Assembly (NCBI RefSeq): GCF_014904705.1
Contig: NZ_JACZCQ010000011.1
Span: 1-64,000 of the forward strand
Direction: 5' to 3'
DNA: 64,000 nt
Source: Nisaea sediminum
Lineage (GTDB): Bacteria; Pseudomonadota; Alphaproteobacteria; Thalassobaculales; Thalassobaculaceae
Shown here piece after piece: positions 13,425 through 24,488 of the stretch. Numbering within the stretch: position 1 is the first letter of the stretch; the number at the start of each line of letters is the position of its first letter. The position numbers were made by a program, and so were the translations under genes. The notes under the pieces were generated by a model. That model was given only the letters and a program-made list of their open reading frames with translations, was not told where the DNA came from and searched no databases.

Positions 13425-15713
13425 CTATCCCTTTCTGGCGCGTGCGCTGTGATGTGCCTGAGCGTCGACGACCGCGACGGTCGCCAAATTCACGATCCCG
13501 CGCACCGTGACCGACGAGGTCAGGATATGCATGGGATAGGCGGTCCCGAGCAGCATCGGCCCGACGGAAAGCCCGCGTCCGAGCGTCTTCAGCAGGTTGA
13601 ACGAGATGTTCGCCGCATCGATGCTCGGCATGACGAGCAGGTTCGCAGCACCTGTCAGACCCGCTTTCGGGAAGGCGCGCTCGCGGATCGATTCGGACAT
13701 CGCGGCGTCGGCATGCATTTCGCCCTCGATCTCGATGTCCGGGTAGGCCTTCTTCAAGCCAGCGACGGACTCCCGCATTCGGACCGCCGATTCCAGGTTC
13801 GAGGAGCCGAAATTGGAATGGGACAGCAAGGCCACCTTCGGCTCGATCCCGAAGCTGCGGACTTCCGTCGCCGCCAGCCCGACCATCTCGATAAGATCGG
13901 ACGCCGACGGCTTCGGATTGACGTGCGTGTCGAGGATGAAAACCGGCCCCTGCGGCATGATCAGGAGACTCAGCGCCGCGCACCGGTGTACGCCGGGACG
14001 CGGCCCGATCACGTCAATGACCTCGAGCAGATGGTCGCGCCAGCGGCCGATCGCGCCGCAGATACCGGCATCCGCTTCGCCGCGGCAAACCATGACCGAC
14101 GAGATTGCCGTCGGCCGGTTCCGCATGATCTGGCGGGCTCGGTCCGGCGAGACCCCTCGGCGCGCCATCATGTCGTGATAGGTGTCGGCGAAGCTGTCGA
14201 GCCGGTCGTCATTCTGCATATCGACGATCTCGATATCGACGCCAGGCTTCATCCTGAGATGCAGTTCCTCGATTTTCTGCGCGATCACGGCGCCGCGCCC
14301 GATGAGAATCGGCCGGGCGATTCCCTCGTCGAGTACCGTCTGGGCGGCACGCAGGATACGGTCCTCTTCCCCTTCGGCGAACGCCACCCTCTTCGGGTCC
14401 TTTTTCGCCGCGAGCGCCATCGGCCGCATCACCTGGCCGGAGCGGTAGACGAACTGGCTGAGCTTCTCGTGGTACCAGCCGAAATCCTCGAGCGGCATGG
14501 TGGCGACGCCGCTGTCCATCGCCGCCTTCGCGACGCGGGGCGCGATTTCGAGAATCAGGCGCGGATCGAACGGTTTCGGGATCAAATATTCGGGCCCGAA
14601 GGACGGCGCTTCACCACCATAGGCGCTCGCGACCACATCCGAGACTTCCTGTTGGGCCAGATCGGCGATCGCCTCGACCGCGGCGATCTTCATCTCCTCG
14701 TTGATCGTCGTCGCGCCGACATCGAGTGCGCCTCGGAAGATGTAGGGGAAGCAGAGAACGTTGTTCACCTGATTCGGATAGTCCGAGCGCCCGGTACAGA
14801 TCACCGCATCGGGACGCACATCGCGGACATCTTCCGGGGTGATTTCCGGGTCGGGGTTGGCGAGCGCGAGGACCAGCGGCCTCGGCGCCATCTTCTTGAC
14901 CATGTCCTGCTTCAGGACCCCCGGCGCCGACAGTCCGAGGAACACGTCGGCACCGTCGATCACCTCGCCCAGCTTGCGGGCCTCGGTCTCCCGGGCGAAG
15001 GGCTCCAGATGCGGGTTCATCGCCGAGCGGCCCTTGTAGACCACGCCGTCGATGTCGGTGACGAAGATGTTCTCGTACTTGACCCCCATGGTCACCAGCA
15101 GCTTCAGGCAGGCCAGCGCGGCCGCGCCGGCGCCGGAGGTGACCAGCTTGATGTCCTCCATCTTCTTGTCGACGCAGCGCAGGCCGCTCAGAATCGCCGC
15201 CGCGACGATGATCGCGGTGCCGTGCTGATCGTCATGGAAGACCGGAATGTTCATCCTGGCGCGGAGCTTCTCCTCGATCTCGAAGCATTCCGGCGCCTTG
15301 ATGTCCTCGAGATTGATGCCGCCGAAGGTCGGCTCGAGCGCCGCGACGACGTCGCAGAACTTGTCGACCTCAAGCGCGTCGACCTCGAGGTCGAACACAT
15401 CGATATAGGCGAATTTCTTGAACAGGACCGCCTTGCCCTCCATCACCGGCTTGGAGGCGAGCGGCCCGATATTCCCGAGACCGAGCACCGCCGTGCCGTT
15501 GGTGACCACGGCAACCAGATTGCCGCGGGCGGTGAGGTTGCGAACTTCGGAAGGATCCTCGGCGATCGCGGTGCAGGCATAGGCAACGCCCGGGGAATAG
15601 GCGAGCGACAGGTCGCGCTGCGTGGCCAGAGGCTTGGTCGCTTCGACCGTCAGCTTTCCGGGCCTCGGATACTTATGGAAATAGAGTGCTGCTTCCTTCA
15701 GTCCTTCAGCCAC
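13425..15713 (-). CDS. maeB: NADP-dependent malic enzyme with phosphotransacetylase-like domain
   Basis: The product has 762 residues, the size of the large bacterial MaeB. The N-terminal half carries malic enzyme motifs: '[15 protein letters not shown]', '[20 protein letters not shown]', '[10 protein letters not shown]' and the dinucleotide-binding '[17 protein letters not shown]'. The C-terminal ~320 residues resemble phosphate acetyltransferase ('[20 protein letters not shown]'; '[20 protein letters not shown]') and in MaeB have a regulatory role. It converts malate to pyruvate, CO2 and NADPH. The start is a GTG at 15713. It is followed directly by mgtE, and tRNA-Leu lies upstream on the same strand. 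Confidence 0.95.
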
Positions 15714-15825
15714 AATGGCTCTCCCCGATCAGGTCTGCATCGCCATTGGATAGCCGCCAACGGCCGCGAACGCCACAGCAGAAATGGCGCCCGGAGGCGA
15801 TTAAGTCATTATGATCAGAGAGAGA

Positions 15826-15912
15826 TGGTGCGGTCGAGAAGACTCGAACTTCCACCCGTGTTACCGGACAGCGACCTCAACGCTGCGCGTCTACCAATTC
15901 CGCCACGACCGC
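15826..15912 (-). tRNA. tRNA-Leu (anticodon GAG), CCA encoded
   Basis: On the minus strand the 5' arm GCGGTCG (ending at 15912) pairs with CGACCGC at 15830-15836, followed by discriminator A and an encoded CCA (15826-15828). The anticodon loop TTGAGGT gives anticodon GAG at 15876-15878. A short class II variable arm (around GTCCGGTAACACGG) and the T-loop GTTCGAGTC are visible. The total length of 87 bases fits a leucine tRNA. GAG reads CUU/CUC codons. Confidence 0.95.
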
Positions 15913-16047
15913 ACGATATATGGCTTGTGAAGGCTTGCGCCTTCGGGATGCGGGGGAGTAGCAAATCCCTCGGAGCTGATCAAGTGGCATTATGCTGAAA
16001 AAGTTGATCGAACGAAAAAATTACCTTCTGCAGGACGAGTGAGGAAC

Positions 16048-16737
16048 ATGGACGTTGAATGGCGGGTATCTGACCGGCCGGTCGCCTATCCGGAAGCGGT
16101 GGCCGAAATGGAAGCCCGCGCGGCGGCCATTCGCGACGGCAGTGCGCCGGAGCTTGTCTGGCTGCTGGAACACCCGCCGCTCTACACCGCCGGCACCAGC
16201 GCCAACGCCGCCGACCTGCTGCAGCCGGACCGCTTCCCGGTCTATGAGGCCGGGCGCGGAGGCCAGTATACCTATCATGGCCCCGGGCAGCGGGTGGCCT
16301 ATGTCCTGCTCGACCTGAAGGCCCGCAAGCCCGATGTCCGCGCCTTCGTCCAGGCGCTGGAGGATTGGGTGATCCGGACGCTCGCCGCCTTCAACGTCAA
16401 AGGCGAACGACGCGACGGGCGCGTCGGCATCTGGGTTACGCGCGGAGACATCGGCGCGCCGAAGAAGGAGGACAAGATCGCCGCCATCGGCGTCCGCGTG
16501 CGGCGCTGGGTGTCCTTTCACGGGATCTCGATCAATGTCGAGCCGGAGCTCTCGCACTTCGAGGGCATCGTTCCCTGCGGCATCTCGGAACACGGCGTGA
16601 CCAGTCTGCACAACCTCGGTCAGCTCGCCTCCATGCCGGAGGTCGACATGGCGCTCCGCGAGTCCTTCGAAGGGGTTTTCGGGCCTGAGAGCGCGTTCGC
16701 ACGCCAGCCGTCAGCGGTGTCTGCCGCCGGTGCCTGA
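16048..16737 (+). CDS. lipB: Octanoyltransferase (lipoate biosynthesis)
   Basis: The product has 229 residues from the ATG at 16048. A GTG at 16039 would add three residues, and Shine-Dalgarno spacing does not settle the choice. '[20 protein letters not shown]' holds the conserved histidine region, '[18 protein letters not shown]' the catalytic lysine, and '[15 protein letters not shown]' the acyl-carrying cysteine. LipB moves octanoate from acyl carrier protein to lipoyl domains of 2-oxoacid dehydrogenases and the glycine cleavage system. Those enzymes include branched-chain 2-oxoacid dehydrogenase, which would feed the neighbouring leucine pathway. It stands alone, divergent from tRNA-Leu. 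Confidence 0.95.
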
Positions 16738-16835
16738 AGGGTTTTTCGGCCATTCCATCGAATTTCTCCTTAAAAAACGAAGAAAACTTTCGTACGGTGT
16801 GGCGACAGCCCTCTCCCCATCCACCCGGTGCTTTC

Positions 16836-17123
16836 GTGACGCAGCCTCGCCCCGATATCGTCCAGACCGTCCAGGACATGACGGAGGAGGAATGCGAGGT
16901 CTTTGACCTGCTGCTTCTCGGTCACGATCCGTCCGACCGCGGCGATCTTGAGATTTTCCTCTCCCGGGTGCGTTCACCGCTGTCCCAGATCCTGCTGCAA
17001 TTGATCGAGAAGGGCCTGATCCAGCGTGTCGAGAACAAAAAAGCAGCGACACAGCTTTCCGTGAACCCGGCGGCGGCGTGGTTTCTGGCCCCGCGTGAGG
17101 AACGTCAGCCGCGACCCGACTGA
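16836..17123 (+). CDS. Small hypothetical protein, possibly winged-helix
   Basis: The product has 95 residues if started at the GTG at 16836. An ATG at 16878 and a GTG at 16797 are alternatives and I cannot choose firmly. The C-terminal part, 'SQILLQLIEKGLIQRVENKK' followed by a short strand-like tail, has the helix-then-wing appearance of a small winged helix domain. I do not recognise a family. It lies between lipB and a convergent unknown gene. The acidic 'DMTEEECEVFDLLLLGHD' segment has a protein-like composition, which supports a real gene. Confidence 0.5.
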   Translation: MTQPRPDIVQTVQDMTEEECEVFDLLLLGHDPSDRGDLEIFLSRVRSPLSQILLQLIEKGLIQRVENKKAATQLSVNPAAAWFLAPREERQPRPD

Positions 17124-17128
17124 GACGT

Positions 17129-17557
17129 CTATCGGACGAGTTCGGCGAGGCCTCCGACGACCAGCTCGACGGCCCGGCGCGCCTCGCGCTCCAACGCAGC
17201 ATTTCCCGGACCGAAGTCAGCCAGAGTGACGGCGGGCAAAGGATCGTCTGCATGCAGCAGGTGATTGCGGCGGTTTCGCAGCCAGACATAATCGGCGCCG
17301 AACCGGATTTCGTTCTGGACCAGCCCGTTCAGGTCGTCCTGCTGCATTTCCGCATCCAGCGCCGCCTGGGCCAGGACCAGAACAGCCACCCAGGCACCGG
17401 ACGCGAAGCACAGACGCATCTCGTCGAACAAAGCGGCGGCCTGCGGCCCGAGATCCAGTCCGTCGCCGTCACTCTCCCGATCGACCAGCCGGTCGACCCA
17501 GGACAGGCGCTGACGCATCTCGGATTGCGAAGCGATTGCGCGGATCGGGGTCTGCAC
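17129..17557 (-). CDS. Hypothetical protein, mostly helical
   Basis: The product has 142 residues starting at a GTG (17557) preceded by a G-rich ribosome site. It is mainly alpha-helical by composition, with 'WVDRLVDRESDGDGLDLGPQ' near the N-terminus and 'VWLRNRRNHLLHADDPLPAV' near the middle. That second segment resembles the RxxxNxxxH type of small DUF4145/HEPN-like helices. This is only a resemblance; no catalytic claim is made. It follows acyP by 9 bases on the same strand, so it is probably translated from the same mRNA. Confidence 0.7.
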   Translation of the reverse strand: MQTPIRAIASQSEMRQRLSWVDRLVDRESDGDGLDLGPQAAALFDEMRLCFASGAWVAVLVLAQAALDAEMQQDDLNGLVQNEIRFGADYVWLRNRRNHLLHADDPLPAVTLADFGPGNAALEREARRAVELVVGGLAELVR

Positions 17558-17566
17558 GCCGCCCCC

Positions 17567-17863
17567 CTAGAGTGTCGGTCTTTGCTGGAAACCGGACTGG
17601 GCGGGAGGGTCCGTGTCGTCGAAACACGCAATCCCGGTCACCCGTGCCGCCGGCGGGCCGCTGCGGCAGGCCTCGATCATGGCGTCCACGCGCGCGGACG
17701 GCCCCGAGAATACCGCCTCCACCGTCCCGTCGCTGCGATTGCGGACCCAGCCGTCGAGCCCTGCCTCGCTCGCTTCCTTGACCGTCCAGCCACGATACCA
17801 CACGCCCTGAACCCGACCGGAGATCACCACCCGCACGGTTACCCTGGGAACATGTTCGCTCAT
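17567..17863 (-). CDS. acyP: Acylphosphatase
   Basis: The product has 98 residues, the normal size of acylphosphatase. The active-site loop 'VISGRVQGVWYRGWT' contains the conserved arginine, and 'GLDGWVRNRSDGTVEAVFSG' contains the catalytic asparagine (WVRN). The enzyme hydrolyses carboxyl-phosphate bonds such as those in acetyl phosphate and 1,3-bisphosphoglycerate. It lies downstream of the 17945-18934 gene on the same strand, with an 81-base gap that may hold its own start signals. Confidence 0.93.
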   Translation of the reverse strand: MSEHVPRVTVRVVISGRVQGVWYRGWTVKEASEAGLDGWVRNRSDGTVEAVFSGPSARVDAMIEACRSGPPAARVTGIACFDDTDPPAQSGFQQRPTL

Positions 17864-17944
17864 CAGCTTGGCGTCCGTCCGCTGCCTCTCGCTTCCGGAG
17901 ACCAGAGTTATCCGTTGCCGGCCGGCTTGTACAGGTCCACCGGC

Positions 17945-18934
17945 TCACGCTGCGGGCGCGGGTGATGCGGACCCGGCGAACGGTACACGCGCAAAGGAAA
18001 CCCCTTCTGCGCTCAGATCCTGCTTCAGGTGCAACACGGTGAGCACGCCGTCGAAGCCACCCAGCCCGTCGGGCATGAGCGCGACCGACGGGCTGGACAA
18101 TATTCCCGCCAAGGTCCCGACCGCGATGTCGGTCTCGGCTCCGTGCACGTCGATCGCCGTGGCATGGATGCCGCCGGGCCCGGTCGCAAAGACAAGCACA
18201 CCCTCGTGCGAAGAGGCCGCCGCGAACTCGAAGATCGGTGCGCCACCCAGAATGTCGTTGCCCGCGACCGGAACTTTCCCTGTCGGGCCGATACCGAGCA
18301 AGACTGGTGCGGCGCCAATGCCGCCCGGAGAGAGCGGACCGATATCGCTGAACTCCTGGAACAGCCAGGCGCTCTCGCCGCCCCCGATATCCAGCGACAA
18401 TGCGCTTCTCCAAGCGCCGATCCAGGTCGGTTTAGCGGTTGGGTGGGCAGGGTCGATCGAGACCAGACCGTCGAGATCACCGCACGCCAGGATCCGGTAA
18501 CTGCCGTCGAGTTGCCGGAAGAGCCTCGGGGCGGAGAAATCCTGCCCGGCGAAGCGAACCGGATCGGAGGGCACGCCCTTGGCAGTCGTCACGTACAGCA
18601 GATCGTTCCAGGCGCCCCCGAACAGCTGCATGACCGCAGCGCCATTGCCGCTTTCGTCCAGTGACAGGTCCCAATCGGGAGCGGATACGAACATCTGCTC
18701 GAAGCCGATCGCGATATCGGCCCCGGGCGTCGAATCCGCTTCGGAAATAACAGATGCCGCCCGTCCCGGCGCAACCGCCTTGAGGGTGACCTCGACCTCC
18801 TCCGCACCGTCGTCCGACGACGTCTCCGATATGACGCCCTTGTAAAGATTGAGGGTTCCGCCGGCTCCGGCCAGACGCGCCGGCGCATAACCGTCGAAGG
18901 AGATCGTTTCCCATTTGATCGAATCTTCAGGCAT
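17945..18934 (-). CDS. Unknown protein coupled to the Nudix-like/transglutaminase protein
   Basis: The product has 329 residues, and I recognise no family. It has no signal peptide or membrane segment and is rich in Gly, Asp, Ser and aromatic residues. It has recurring short strands such as 'WNDLLYVTTAKG', 'GSYRILACGDLDGLVSID', 'ESAWLFQEFSDIG' and 'GVLVFATGPGGIHATAID', a pattern suggesting beta-propeller-like blades. That fold is my inference. Its ribosome site (GGGAG at 18942-18946) overlaps the stop of the preceding large gene, and only 11 bases separate the two genes. This arrangement suggests coupled translation and a shared job or complex. Confidence 0.75.
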   Translation of the reverse strand: MPEDSIKWETISFDGYAPARLAGAGGTLNLYKGVISETSSDDGAEEVEVTLKAVAPGRAASVISEADSTPGADIAIGFEQMFVSAPDWDLSLDESGNGAAVMQLFGGAWNDLLYVTTAKGVPSDPVRFAGQDFSAPRLFRQLDGSYRILACGDLDGLVSIDPAHPTAKPTWIGAWRSALSLDIGGGESAWLFQEFSDIGPLSPGGIGAAPVLLGIGPTGKVPVAGNDILGGAPIFEFAAASSHEGVLVFATGPGGIHATAIDVHGAETDIAVGTLAGILSSPSVALMPDGLGGFDGVLTVLHLKQDLSAEGVSFARVPFAGSASPAPAA

Positions 18935-18945
18935 ACGCCCACTCC

Positions 18946-21900
18946 CTAATTGAGGTTATGCAGGACGGTCAGCCTACGGAGTTTGAGTATGTTGTTGGCG
19001 GCCCCCGCGGCGACGGAGAACCCGAGTCGAGGATTCGCGCCACGGGACAGCCCGGCCGAGGCCGCGGTCACATAGGCTGCTGCCGTGTTCACGACCGGAC
19101 TGCCGTAGGATGGATCGTAGAAAGCAAGACCTCCGGCAGTGTCGTAGACGATGTAGTGATTGCCGAACCGCTCCGGCGGCGTCTGATTGTTCTGTGCGAC
19201 CACTCCTGGCCCCCAGGTCGCGGTCCCTGCCACGGCCGTTCCGGGTGCGCCACGATCATGCGTGTAGGCATTCGCCGAGGCCGCCGGCGGCGCATGGAAG
19301 GTCCAGTTCGAAACCATGAACCCGGTTGCCGTACCGCTGACCGCCGCGTTCGGCTCGACCGAGACCTTCCGCGGCGTCGCCTCGCCATGCGCGGCGAACA
19401 TGGCGATCAGCAGTTCCGCCCACGCACCACAGGCGCAGGAGATCGTCCCGCCGGTCGGAGCGGTCGACAGCATCGTGTTCAATCTCTGCTGCGGAGGACG
19501 GGCGGTCCAATAGGTCATTCTGGCATTGTCCCATGCGCGCAGAGCCCCCGGGTTATCGCCGGAGGCGGGATCGAGCTCGCCGCCGCCGAACTGGGCGAAC
19601 GCCGAATAGATGGCGGTCTTCAATTGCGCGGCATTCCCGGCCTGGCCGTCGGCGGCGGCGCAGGAAAGTTTCAGCACAGTCCAATAGTTGCTCGCGCCGC
19701 CTCCCGGAAGCCGATCGCCATTCACCGGGTCCGCATAGGTCACATAGACTTGGTGGCTGGTGACGTCGAACAGGGTCCAGTTTCCGTCATGTCCTCCGGT
19801 GGCCCGCATCTCCCACAGCAAGCGGACCGGGTCGCCATGCACGACCTGATTCGGCAGGGTCACATTGGCATTCGCCGCGGCGGGGGTAAGATCCGCCGTC
19901 GCCCCGTTCGCGGACGCGATATTGTTCCAGCTCCAGATCATGGTGTGGAACGAGCCGTCGGCCAGCGGCAGGAACAGGGTGGCCCGGACATCGATCGCAG
20001 TTCCGGTTCCCGCTGTATTGACGCGAAAGACCGGCTGCAGGCCGACATTGGTATTCCTCGTATAGGTCTGCGGCACTGTCTGTCCCGGCTGCCAGACGCG
20101 ACCATAGGCATTGCCGAAGTTGACGCCGTCTTCCCGCAACACCGAACGGCCTCCGCTGAAGGTGATCTGGCGGACATCGATCTGCGGTGTCCCAACCGGC
20201 CATTGCTGAGTATTCTTGATCGTTAGAAGTGCCGCTAAGGGGTTTGCCGAATTGGAGCGCACCTGAAGCTGCACGGTCGCCGCGCCGTCGAGATAGACCA
20301 GACGGCGGTTGTCGGCGATGCCTGGGGCACTGTCGTTCGCCCAGACGAGATGCAGCCAGGCCGGCGCCGTATCCGGATCGGTGACGGCGATCGCCTGCGC
20401 CGGTATATGGTTCGGCAACCCGAACTGGTTCGAGATCGCATAGCTGTACCAGGCGTTCGTGTTGTCGCGGAACGCGAAGCTCTCGTAGGCGAGCGACTGG
20501 ACGGTCGGCACGATCTCGACACCGATGCTCGTATTCTCGACATCCTCGTCGCCGATGGTCTGCGTCACCGTATGGTTGGTGAAGGCTCCGGGCGCGCTGA
20601 TCGGATGACGGTTGATCGTGATGTCCCGGGTATGCTGCTCGCCGGTGTCCCAGTTCAGGTAGAAGTAGGATTGCGGCCGGTCCGGGTTCAGCAGCCCGCG
20701 CAGGGTCGCCTGTGCGCCCGCCTGATAGTCGATACTGTAATTCGTTCCCGCGACCTGACGGGAGGGCGCGTTGCGGATCTCGATCCCGGTCAGGTGTGCA
20801 TAGACGATCACCGCCATCTCGATCTCTGGATTGACCGACGCCTTTACCCGGACCGGCGCTTTCGGATCCACCACCGTTCCGCGGGACACGGTGCGTTTGG
20901 CCGGATTGCCCGAAACCGGGTTGCCCCCCTCCCAGGTCACCGCGTCGAAAGCCTCCGAACTGTTCGGCCGAAGTTTCAGGGTCACAACGACATCGGATTC
21001 CTCTTCGGAATAGGCCGCCGCATAGATCGCAACCTTCTCCTTCTCGCCGATCTTCTTGGCGTTCTCGACCTCGAAGCCGACCAGCTCCGGGATGATCGTA
21101 AGCGCGATCTGACGGGAGCCGCCGTCTGATTCCGCCTTGACCGTCAGGGGCCGCCCCTTTGCCGTGACCCTGTCGAGCGCCACTTCCGCGGCGGCGCCTG
21201 CGGATTGCGTCGCCCCGGCCCAGGTGACCGCCGGCATCTCGCCGACCGGCGGCGGATCGAACAATGCCGTCACCCGGACCGCCGTCCCGCCATATTGCGC
21301 CCGGTAGGCATCCACCCCGGTGGAGGTCGCTCCGTCCACCCGCAGCCCGACCAGCTTCGATTTGCTCACCGGCGCGACCGACCCTTCCGGCAGAAGCTTC
21401 TCGATCGCCTGCTCGAACCATGCGCCGCTCTGCTTGGTCGAGGCCGCGATCTGACCCGTCAGCGTGTCGACTTCGGTATTGAACGGGCCCGGCGGCGTGC
21501 CGCCGTAGAAATTCTTGATGATGAAGGCCTGCCAGCCGCTCTGCGGCGGAAGCACCGGACCGAGATTCTCCAGTGCCTCCGTCCGGCGCGGAATGCCGGT
21601 CTTTGCAAACAGACAATCCTGCATGGACAGCTTCTGGATATTGCCGTCGACGGCATCGGCGAAACGCCGGAGCCCCGACGCCGAGAACGGATATTCGATG
21701 ACCGCGAAGGGATTGTAGTCCCGGTCTTCCAGGCGATGCAGTTTAGGCTCGCCGATGTCGTAGTTCGTCCGCGCAACCGGATCGTCGAGCCGCATCCCTG
21801 TCTCGGCCAGCACTATCGCCCGGAGCGCCTTGGCCGGATCCTGGTCCTTTCCATGCGCACCGCCCGGCAGCACCCACTGCCCCGCATGGTCGGGTATCTG

Positions 21901-22011
21901 CCCGCGGATCTTCTTCGACCCGGCCCAGGTCTGGATGAACACCCGCTGGCCAAGCAGGACGAGCTGCTCGATGTCACCGGGCGCATGGGCAAGCAGATAG
22001 ACGAAGGGCAT
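18946..22011 (-). CDS. Multidomain protein: degenerate Nudix-like domain, Ig-like repeats, transglutaminase-like C-terminus
   Basis: The product has 1021 residues from the ATG at 22011 (GGGGAG seven bases upstream); a TTG at 22026 is an alternative. Residues 1-150 look like a Nudix domain ([20 protein letters not shown]). The box has canonical spacing, but Glu57 is Gln, Arg65 is Ala, Glu66 is Ile and Glu69 is Ala, so hydrolysis is unlikely. Residues ~219-502 hold three ~95-residue Ig-like repeats, each with a Trp at the same point (264, 360, 454). Residues ~770-1021 carry a transglutaminase/papain-like triad: Cys861 in '[14 protein letters not shown]', His952 in 'GNHYIVY', Asp966 in 'FYDPSYG'. 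No secretion signal is seen. The role is unknown; I infer a sensor/adaptor head fused to a protease- or crosslinking-type domain. Confidence 0.8.
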
Positions 22012-22179
22012 GGTCGGACTCCCCAACGGACAGGCTCGTCGGTTCGACGTCCGGCCGTCCGATTCTGTGAAGGCGGAAGCCGTGACGCACCTGCCGTCCC
22101 GCCCGCTGTCCGAAGGTTTCCCTGTTCCTTGAGTTCACCCTTGCCCGGCCATGGGCCCGGTCCGTATAAGGGGCCTTTA

Positions 22180-23163
22180 ATGACAAGCTCTCAGCCATCG
22201 GCCACAAGTGACGCGCCCGCGCTCCGACTCCAGCACCTGCTGGGGATCGAAGGACTGTCGCGCCCCGACATCGAAGCGCTCCTGGATCTTTCCGACCGCT
22301 ATGTCGATCTCAACCGCCGCGCGGACAAGAAAATGTCGAGCCTGCGCGGGCGGACGATCATCAACCTGTTCTTCGAGGACTCGACGCGCACGCGGACGAG
22401 TTTCGAGCTCGCCGGCAAGCGGCTGGGCGCCGATGTGCTCAACATGTCGGTCGGCACCAGTTCGGTGAAGAAGGGCGAGACGCTGATCGACACCGCGGTC
22501 ACCCTGAACGCCATGCACCCGGACGTGCTGACCATCCGCCACGCGGACTCGGGCGCGGTCCACCTGCTCGCCCAGAAGGTCAATTGCGGCGTGATCAATG
22601 CCGGCGACGGCAGCCACGAGCATCCGACCCAGGCCCTGCTCGACGCCCTGACGATCCGCCGGCGCAAGGGCGAGATCACCGGCCTCACCGTCGCGATCTG
22701 CGGCGACGTCGCGCACAGCCGCGTCGCCCGCTCCAACATCCATCTGCTCTCGATCATGGGGGCGCGGGTCCGCATCGTGGCGCCGCCGACCCTTATCCCG
22801 GCCGGACTCGAGCGATTCGGCGTTGAGATCTATCATGACATGCGCACCGGCCTCGCGGACTGCGACATCGTCATGATGCTGCGGCTGCAGAACGAGCGCA
22901 TGCAGGCGAGCTACATCCCCTCGATCCGCGAGTACTACAAGCTCTTCGGCCTCGATCACGACAAGCTCTCGGTCGCCAGGCCCGACGCGCTGGTGATGCA
23001 TCCGGGACCGATGAACCGCGGCGTTGAGATCGACTCCGACGTCGCCGACGACATCGAACGCAGCCTGATCCGCGAGCAGGTCGAGATGGGTGTCGCCGTC
23101 CGTATGGCCTGCCTCGAGGTGCTGGCCCAGTCTCAGCTCGAACCGTGGGCGAAAAACCAGTGA
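22180..23163 (+). CDS. pyrB: Aspartate carbamoyltransferase catalytic subunit
   Basis: The product has 327 residues from the ATG at 22180. The open frame extends almost 1 kb upstream, but that part is the shadow of the opposite-strand gene. '[20 protein letters not shown]' contains the carbamoyl phosphate motif STRTR, and '[20 protein letters not shown]' and '[17 protein letters not shown]' are ATCase signatures. It makes carbamoyl aspartate in pyrimidine synthesis. It overlaps the downstream dihydroorotase-like gene by 4 bases. In bacteria with a catalytically dead PyrX, the pair forms one dodecameric complex; that may apply here. Confidence 0.95.
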
Positions 23164-24488
23164 AGCGCACGATCTTCAAGAATGCCCGCCTGCTCGATCC
23201 CGCCTCCGGACTCGACAGCCAGGGCGCGATGCTCGTGGACGGCGCCCGGATCGCCGATATCGGCCCGAACATCTTCGTCGACGCGGTGCAGGACGACGTT
23301 CATGTCGTGGACTGCAAGGGGCTCTGCCTCGCGCCCGGCATCGTCGATATGCGGGTCTCCACCGGCGAGCCCGGAAACGAGCATATGGAAACCCTGGCGA
23401 CCGCCGCTCACGCCGCCGTCGCCGGGGGCGTGACCACCTTCGCCTGCCTGCCCAACACCAACCCGATCGTCGACGATGTCGCGGTGCTGGAATTCGTCGA
23501 ACGGCTCGGCCGCGATGTCGGGCTGGTCAACATCCATTCCTACGCCGCCGCGACCAAGGGCCTGCAGGGCAAGATCATGACCGAGCTCGGCCTGTTGCAC
23601 GAAGCGGGTGCGGCCGGCTTCACGGACGGCGGCAAGGCGATCGCCCATGCCGGTGTGATGCGGCGCCTGCTCTCCTACGCCAGGCTGTTCGACACCATGA
23701 TCGTCCAGCACCCCGAACTGCCGGAGCTGGTCGGCAGCGGCGTGATGAACGAAGGCGAGACCGCGACAAGGCTCGGCCTGCCGGGCATTCCGGCCGTCGC
23801 CGAAGTGATGATGGTGGAGCGCGATCTCCGCCTGCTGGAGCTGACCGGCGGGCGGCTGCATTTTTCCTGCCTTTCCACCGGAGACGCCATTGAAGCGATC
23901 CGCAAGGCCAAGGCGCGCGGATTGCAGGTCACGGCGGACACCGCCCCACCCTATTTCGCGCTCACGGAGTCCGAGGTTGTCGGCTACCGCACCTTCGCCA
24001 AGCTGTCGCCGCCGCTCCGCACCGAGGACGATCGGCGCGCGGTGATCGCGGGCATCGCCGACGGCACCATCGACGCCATCGTCAGCGCGCACACGCCGGG
24101 CGACCGCGACCAGAAGCGCCTGCCTTTCGGCCAGGCCGATTTCGGCGGCGTCGGACTGGAAACCCTGCTCTCGGTATCGCTCGAGCTGGTGCACAACGGC
24201 GATGTGCCCATGCTGACCGTGCTCAAGGCACTGACCGATACCCCGGCCGAGCTGCTGAAGTTCCCGGCGGGCCGCCTGCGCAAGGGCCACCTTGCAGACT
24301 TCATCCTGTTCGATCCCGATCGCGCGGTCAGGATCGACCGGGACGAACTGCGCGGCAAATCGAGGAACACCCCGTTCGACGAGCGCCCGGTCCAGGGCCG
24401 GGTCGAGAAGACCTATCGCGCGGGCAATCTCGTCTTCGATATCGAGACCGCGCCAGTACCGGAACGGCGGAGGTTCCCCGATGCCTGA
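23160..24488 (+). CDS. pyrX: Dihydroorotase-like protein, probably inactive PyrX type
   Basis: The product has 442 residues from a GTG at 23160 overlapping the pyrB stop. It has the amidohydrolase layout (N-terminal strands, '[17 protein letters not shown]', barrel, C-terminal '[15 protein letters not shown]'). The metal-binding HxH normally found after 'GxxDxH' is missing: the position reads D-M-R-V-S. The late segment with the catalytic aspartate (usually TDHAPH) reads '[11 protein letters not shown]'. It is therefore probably a structural partner of PyrB rather than an enzyme, as known for PyrX proteins. A functional PyrC would be needed elsewhere in the genome. Confidence 0.85.

What the first reader, a model, noticed from the sequence alone, without database searches (positions are those of the whole stretch)
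18946..22011. Dead Nudix-box head fused to Ig-like repeats and a transglutaminase-like triad
Seen: at residues 51-73 the Nudix box spacing is exactly canonical (G51-x5-Q57-x7-A65...E70-x-G72), but the catalytic positions Glu57, Arg65, Glu66 and Glu69 are changed to Gln, Ala, Ile and Ala. A Cys861/His952/Asp966 arrangement of the transglutaminase/papain kind lies at the C-terminus, with three ~95-residue repeats (Trp at 264, 360, 454) early in the middle. Known: Nudix domains hydrolyse nucleoside diphosphate derivatives through those glutamates, and dead ones can act as ligand sensors. Inference: a ligand-sensing head controlling a protein-cleaving or crosslinking domain. I do not know any named system with this architecture.
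Basis: partly seen in the sequence, partly recalled or inferred. Interest (0 to 1): 0.75.

Follow-up and report, generated by a model that had tools for sequence, protein, structure and literature searches.

The report
Orphan protein with degenerate Nudix head
A marine bacterium carries a small two-gene insert whose large protein starts with a nucleotide-enzyme domain that has lost its catalytic residues but stays conserved, and ends in a possible cysteine-enzyme domain; what it does is unknown.

Summary
The head resembles Nudix proteins at the Nudix box and nowhere else detectable (10.5 bits; best of 500 shuffles 2.9); four of five catalytic box residues are replaced. Head and C-terminus are the most constrained of five segments (dN/dS 0.079 each, one species pair), so the broken box does not look like decay. 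The transglutaminase reading is weaker. A Transglut_core model from 25 loci finds nothing; only the Cys861 helix resembles that class (23rd of 1,483 cysteine segments), catalytic spacing differs, and both AlphaFold models are unusable (pLDDT 27.9 and 32.2). Of the three claimed repeats only the first pair is clearly supported. Protein and a coupled 329-aa partner form a ~4.2 kb insert in 2 of 5 genomes of the genus, with empty sites in the other three; no other homologue was found in the sets searched. Best reading: an accessory cassette in which a ligand-binding former Nudix head controls a papain/transglutaminase-superfamily enzyme. The mechanism is inferred, not shown. New variant at most; moderate interest.

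The parts
18946..22011 (-). CDS, 1021 aa, no family assignment; stop codon at 18948-18946
   Evidence: GC by codon position 0.63/0.50/0.79; dN/dS 0.126 against the orthologue; GGGGAG ahead of the ATG (sequence)
21562..22011 (-). Residues 1-150: head with degenerate Nudix box; detectable similarity only at residues about 37-84
   Evidence: Pfam NUDIX E 0.087 for the whole protein, E 0.027 for residues 1-160 (14.9 bits, cut-off 21.1); own Nudix model 10.5 bits against a best of 2.9 in 500 shuffles; dN/dS 0.079
21793..21861 (-). Residues 51-73: Nudix box with canonical spacing; catalytic positions are Q57, A65, I66, A69; only E70 is kept
   Evidence: the orthologue has Q57, A65, M66, A69, E70
20497..21357 (-). 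Residues 219-505: repeat region; first two units (219-310, 309-408) clearly alike, third (405-505) marginal or not
   Evidence: shuffles reaching the score 0, 13 and 288 of 500 for units 1-2, 2-3 and 1-3
19717..20496 (-). Residues 506-765: no recognisable domain
   Evidence: No Pfam match for the pieces scanned; dN/dS 0.116
18949..19716 (-). Residues 766-1021: candidate papain/transglutaminase-superfamily domain
   Evidence: Cys861 segment 23rd of 1,483 cysteine segments; dN/dS 0.079; no profile match
19429..19431 (-). Codon of Cys861, proposed nucleophile
19156..19158 (-). Codon of His952, proposed base
19114..19116 (-). Codon of Asp966, proposed third residue, in FYDPSYG
17945..18934 (-). 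Partner CDS, 329 aa; its ATG lies 11 bases after the stop of the large gene, with GGGAG between
   Evidence: syntenic in L002; dN/dS 0.169; no family match
17936..22130 (.). Approximate extent of the ~4.2 kb insert between acyP and pyrB, absent from three other genomes of the genus
   Evidence: homology to the empty sites ends near 17935 and resumes near 22126-22139

Best explanation
A two-gene accessory cassette. Its large protein joins a former Nudix domain, which by its residues can hardly hydrolyse but is kept under selection, probably because it still binds a nucleotide-type ligand or a partner; a spacer with beta-type repeats; and a C-terminal domain that is probably a distant papain/transglutaminase-superfamily cysteine enzyme with Cys861, His952 and Asp966 as its triad. 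Proposed working: ligand binding at the head, or loss of contact with the 329-aa partner, switches the C-terminal enzyme on, and it cleaves, deamidates or cross-links a protein. Shown by sequence: the Nudix-box resemblance with four substitutions, the constraint on head and C-terminus, the closely linked partner, and presence or absence at one site. Inferred: loss of hydrolysis, ligand binding, the fold and activity of the C-terminus, the coupling of head to enzyme, the role of the partner.
For: Head: the own Nudix model scores 10.5 bits in register with the box, 0 of 500 shuffles above 2.9. A PDB search of residues 1-160 gives 5 matches at E up to 10, all named as MutT/Nudix proteins or GDP-mannose mannosyl hydrolase (a Nudix enzyme, recalled), E 0.3-0.47. 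7 of 9 plasmid matches to residues 1-210 carry Nudix-type labels, E 0.2-7, five of them from Azospirillum and probably one gene. 7 of 16 non-self matches of the head profile in 376 class genomes are Nudix hydrolases with intact boxes, among them the best five; they come from four or five genera, not seven. Constraint: dN/dS 0.079 in both head and C-terminus against 0.179 in the repeat region and 0.169 in the partner (one pair). C-terminus: the Cys861 segment is outscored by only 22 of 1,482 control cysteine segments against the transglutaminase Cys helix; the low-confidence models put a helix at or just after Cys861 and strands at His952 and at or next to Asp966. Cassette. Precedent: the TRPM2 Nudix-like domain binds ADP-ribose without hydrolysing it (PMC4974056, passages); Nudix sensors of the NrtR type are described as sensing ADP-ribose (PMC9503650, passages).
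Against: No Pfam or NCBIfam match passes its cut-off; PADLOC and PHROGs matches are weak. The genus-wide Pfam searches did not list this head among 52 NUDIX matches, nor this C-terminus among the Transglut_core matches of the own genome. The Transglut_core model gives -3.0 bits for the C-terminus while the best of 500 shuffles reached 9.7. Cys-His is 91 and His-Asp 14 residues, against 37-53 and 16 in the 17 of 25 local transglutaminase loci that have the His. Both structure predictions are unusable. Only one orthologue is known, at 93% identity, so conservation of the triad says little. None of the ten neighbours scanned looks like a ligand-making enzyme.
Confidence: 0.33

Rival explanations
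1. The head is a fixed scaffold or docking module derived from a Nudix protein, not a ligand sensor; the C-terminal cysteine enzyme, if active, is controlled only by the partner, which could be its inhibitor or immunity protein, as in polymorphic effector pairs.
For: Partner gene 11 bases downstream, present with the large gene in both genomes that have it; patchy two-gene insert. A published effector associated with contractile injection systems, EAT14, also ends in a transglutaminase-like domain behind an unrelated head (PMC11297309, passages).
Against: No VipB and no Phage_sheath_1 match in the genome (only these two families were tried), no secretion gene named among the ten neighbours scanned, two of which have no Pfam match, and no obvious signal peptide (by eye). 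Immunity partners often diverge fast (recalled), yet the partner's dN/dS (0.169) is only modestly above that of the protein (0.126).
Confidence: 0.27
2. The C-terminus is not a papain/transglutaminase fold; the Cys-His-Asp set is a chance pattern, and the protein is a non-enzymatic binding or structural protein with a dead head.
For: No score from the Transglut_core model, no Pfam match of the whole C-terminus, spacing off; 22 of 1,482 control cysteines score as well. A PDB profile search returns only two WDR24 sequences, E 0.0028 and 0.073, the first with 0.19 for its best stretch, which I take for a chance match.
Against: The C-terminus is as constrained as the head. Of the four cysteines tested only Cys861, the one followed by His and Asp in the right order, scores near the top; shuffling the residues after it reaches its score in 16 of 2,000 trials.
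Confidence: 0.3
3. Degenerating gene or spurious frame without function.
For: Broken Nudix box; almost no relatives found.
Against: Full-length frame kept in two genomes with dN/dS 0.126 and dS 0.307, and 0.079 in the head that carries the substitutions; codon-position GC of a real gene.
Confidence: 0.03

Closest known systems
NUDT9-homology domain of TRPM2 (passages of PMC4974056)
   Same: Nudix-derived domain with substituted box residues that does not hydrolyse, part of a larger protein with another activity
   Different: Eukaryotic channel, domain at the C-terminus, ADP-ribose binding measured; here no ligand is known and no enzyme is proven
NrtR-type Nudix regulators (starts of abstracts; passage of PMC9503650)
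   Same: Bacterial Nudix domain used as a sensor fused to an output domain
   Different: Output is a DNA-binding domain; here repeats and a possible cysteine enzyme
Transglutaminase-like / papain-like superfamily (passages of PMC10318531)
   Same: Order Cys, His, Asp, with the cysteine at a helix and His and Asp at strands (here only from sequence and low-confidence models)
   Different: No match to Transglut_core; His-Asp 14 instead of 16, Cys-His 91 instead of 37-53 in the transglutaminases of the same order that have the His
Effector EAT14 with C-terminal transglutaminase-like domain (passages of PMC11297309)
   Same: N-terminal head of another family joined to a C-terminal transglutaminase-like domain
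   Different: DUF4157 head and contractile injection system; here a Nudix-type head and no match to the two sheath families tried

Membership tests
Nudix superfamily (Pfam PF00293) | Profile match above the curated cut-off | tested here: not met
   13.3 bits for the whole protein, 14.9 bits for residues 1-160, cut-off 21.1
Nudix superfamily (Pfam PF00293) | Similarity above chance in register with the Nudix box | tested here: met
   10.5 bits, 0 of 500 shuffles above 2.9; the five best non-self genome matches are Nudix hydrolases
Nudix superfamily (Pfam PF00293) | Catalytic residues G-x5-E-x7-R-E-x2-E-E | tested here: not met
   Q57, A65, I66, A69; only E70 kept. 25 of 30 Nudix loci of the genus and 7 of 7 Nudix matches have this pattern
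Nudix superfamily (Pfam PF00293) | Nudix fold | tested here: inconclusive
   Full-length model pLDDT 27.9
Transglutaminase core (Pfam PF01841) | Profile match | tested here: not met
   No Pfam match; own model from 25 loci -3.0 bits, best of 500 shuffles 9.7
Transglutaminase core (Pfam PF01841) | Cys helix, His, Asp in order with family spacing | tested here: inconclusive
   Order right and Cys helix 23rd of 1,483, but His-Asp 14 against 16 in 17 of 17 and Cys-His 91 against 37-53; 8 of 25 loci lack the His
Papain-like superfamily in the wide sense | Fold with the three residues in one pocket | tested here: inconclusive
   C-terminal model pLDDT 32.2; not searched against structure libraries for that reason
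Ig-like repeat proteins | Three similar ~95-residue units | tested here: inconclusive
   Only units 1-2 clearly alike; no Pfam match for the pieces scanned
T6SS or contractile-injection effector | Sheath gene of the injection apparatus in the genome (VipB, Phage_sheath_1) | tested here: not met
   No match of either family in the window's genome (98.83% complete, 22 contigs); controls rang in 1 and 3 of 14 named genomes; other sheath families not tried
Known anti-phage defence systems (PADLOC 2023) | Model match of either gene | tested here: not met
   Only a DruK match, E 0.012, residues 376-418 in the repeat region, which I take for chance; none for the partner

The most novel reading that the evidence does not exclude
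A bacterial ligand-gated cysteine enzyme in which a dead Nudix domain reads a nucleotide second messenger and switches on a divergent papain/transglutaminase-type domain, with a closely linked partner as brake or target: a sensor-effector protein of a type that the searches did not turn up in print, carried as a small cassette.
Probability: 0.12. Interest if true: 0.75.

Novelty: new variant of a known kind. Interest (0 to 1): 0.4.

Why it matters
Dead enzyme domains reused as sensors are known in well-studied cases such as TRPM2. A compact cassette with a dead Nudix head and a possible cysteine enzyme on one chain would give a simple system in which ligand, switch and output can be measured together. 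If the C-terminus is not an enzyme, the case still shows an orphan protein whose catalytically broken domain is under strong selection.

Tried and rejected
Homologue searches that gave nothing usable. Full length in 385 class genomes: two non-self matches, both ordinary Nudix hydrolases. C-terminal profile in 398 phylum and 385 class genomes: 9 non-self matches each; of these 18 I read 13 by eye (L011; L007, L008, L010, L012, L013, L015; L110, L112, L113, L115, L116, L118), and none looked like a relative; L009, L014, L111, L114 and L117 were not read. Partner in 289 class genomes: one weak match, not followed. Phages, plasmids and viral contigs: the phage matches of the head (32 records, best E 0.2) are, in the 20 listed, virion RNA polymerase at residues 102-206, outside the box; not followed. 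One plasmid match (H28) overlaps, antisense, a 403-aa frame that looks to me like a transposase. The genome-contig scan used exact peptides and cannot reach distant relatives.

Structure: two AlphaFold jobs with two-row alignments, both unusable; no fold search was made on them. PDB sequence searches of the whole protein, the C-terminus and the partner gave only matches that I take for chance (best E 1.2, 1 and 0.14).

Transglut_core membership: tested and not met. A beta-propeller reading of the partner, my own idea, was dropped: its internal similarity is within shuffles (44 of 60 reach it). Secreted-effector reading: weakened by the lack of sheath matches, not excluded. Promoter and terminator scans found no more than shuffles; Rfam found nothing in 15500-23500. 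A resemblance of FYDPSYG to the Asp motif of certain papain-like effectors came from memory only and was not tested, since the yardstick would have been effectors of listed germs.

Literature (listings unless said): nine papers hold at least three of five terms, none of them about this architecture by title and start of abstract; three on inactive Nudix domains; no paper holds four of five terms; three hold three of four; one paper holds all of nudix, fused, transglutaminase, domain architecture and bacteria, and its two passages name the two domains separately.

Full report
What is there. The finding lies on the minus strand: ATG at 22011, stop at 18946, 1021 residues. Codon-position GC is that of a real gene (0.63/0.50/0.79). 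The genome is close to Nisaea: the only record found by the genome-contig scan is a metagenome-assembled Nisaea sp. (HXMU1428-11; L002, 93% identity, residues 1-1021).

Surroundings. The gene is followed after 11 bases, with a GGGAG between, by a 329-aa gene (18934-17945) that is also present and syntenic in L002. Of ten neighbours scanned with Pfam, eight have matches: a malic enzyme/phosphotransacetylase fusion, an MgtE transporter, a lipoyl ligase-type protein, an acylphosphatase, and on the other side an aspartate/ornithine carbamoyltransferase (pyrB), an amidohydrolase (probably pyrC), a glycerol-3-phosphate acyltransferase and DprA; two have none. In three other genomes of the genus (G016, G017, G018) the acylphosphatase and pyrB matches are about 180 to 280 bases apart instead of about 4.3 kb; homology to the empty sites ends near 17935 and resumes near 22126-22139; I saw no flanking direct repeat by eye and did not search for one by program. 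The pair is thus a ~4.2 kb insert found in 2 of 5 genomes of the genus and 2 of 36 of the order.

The head. Pfam's NUDIX model is the only Pfam match of the whole protein, and it is below the cut-off (13.3 against 21.1 bits); the same family sought in five genomes of the genus gives 52 matches at E up to 0.001 and does not list this head. Five PDB matches to residues 1-160 at E up to 10 are all MutT/Nudix-type proteins over the box, E 0.3-0.47. A model built from 30 of those 52 loci scores the head 10.5 bits at residues 37-82, with the box in register; the best of 500 shuffles is 2.9. The head profile in 376 class genomes gives 16 non-self matches at E up to 0.05; 7 are Nudix hydrolases with intact boxes, including the best five, three of them from one genus and two from another. 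The other nine were not recognised as Nudix; two of these (L103, L109) could not be read at the match, and L109 may be an eighth. Of nine plasmid matches seven have Nudix-type labels, five of them Azospirillum; the phage matches do not support it. So the box region is Nudix-derived with good confidence; a whole Nudix fold is not shown. Four of five catalytic positions are changed (Q57, A65, I66, A69; E70 kept); the orthologue has the same except M66.

Constraint. Against the orthologue dN/dS is 0.126 for the protein, 0.079 for residues 1-150, 0.231 for 151-215, 0.179 for 216-505, 0.116 for 506-765, 0.079 for 766-1020, 0.169 for the partner, 0.028 for pyrB and 0.087 for acyP (one pair, Nei-Gojobori). 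The broken head is among the best kept parts of the protein, though less kept than pyrB.

The middle. Ten pairs of five segments were compared. Units 1 and 2 (219-310, 309-408) are alike (score 64, shuffle maximum 50); units 2 and 3 are marginal (13 of 500); units 1 and 3 are not alike (288 of 500). Pairs with 613-765 reach 9 and 11 of 500 for units 1 and 2, so weak similarity is not confined to the claimed repeats. No Pfam model matches the pieces scanned.

The C-terminus. Scanned as one piece it has no Pfam and no PHROGs match; a 140-residue piece gives FTCD_C at E 0.54. The own genome has three Transglut_core matches, none of them here. A Transglut_core model from 25 of 30 loci gives -3.0 bits, below the best shuffles (9.7). 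Compared only at the cysteine helix, Cys861 is outscored by 22 of 1,482 control cysteines from frames of 150 residues or more in the window and five loci (coding or not), the other three cysteines tested by 835 or more; shuffling the following residues reaches the score in 16 of 2,000 trials; true family members score 37-57 against -0.8 here. His952 to Asp966 is 14 residues and Cys861 to His952 is 91, against 16 (17 of 17) and 37-53 in the local loci that have the His; 8 of 25 lack it. This fits a distant member of the wider superfamily, or chance. The PDB profile matches to WDR24 look like chance. AlphaFold with two-row alignments gave pLDDT 27.9 and 32.2; both models put a helix at or just after Cys861 and strands at His952 and at or next to Asp966, but at that confidence this proves nothing.

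Distribution. Apart from the one orthologue no homologue was found. The genome-contig and viral-contig scans rest on short exact peptides and reach only close relatives, and of 18 weak C-terminal matches five were not read, so orphan status holds for the sets searched, not absolutely.

How it may work. Nudix-derived domains without hydrolysis can serve as ligand switches: TRPM2 (PMC4974056, passages) and NrtR-type regulators (PMC9503650, passages; starts of abstracts). By analogy the head here may bind a nucleotide-type ligand and control the C-terminal domain. The partner may be brake, target or second subunit. None of this is tested. The main rivals are a docking head with a partner-controlled enzyme, and a protein that is no enzyme at all.

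Verdict. Observation partly confirmed; the head stands, the triad is a lead, the repeat count is overstated. Not a member of Transglut_core by test; Nudix-derived at the box but not a Nudix hydrolase by its residues. Moderate interest, mainly for a conserved dead domain in an orphan cassette.

Noticed in passing
window 16682-17223; L028 6876-8783: Between the lipoyl ligase gene and acyP the three sibling genomes lack homology to the window over a stretch of different length (about 1.9 kb in L028 against 0.5 kb here): a second variable slot close to the insert.
   Followed up: no
window 17129-17557 (-): 142-aa protein without Pfam match next to acyP, also present in L002.
   Followed up: no
window 15826-15912 (-): tRNA-Leu (gag), the only tRNA found in the window, about 2 kb from the insert; whether it has to do with the insertion was not examined.
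   Followed up: no
window 21757-21906 (-), P0001 residues 36-85: Two PHROGs families of unknown function (phrog_13689, E 0.066; phrog_6216, E 0.33, 545 positions) match weakly over the Nudix box; phrog_6216 may be another long protein with such a head.
   Followed up: no
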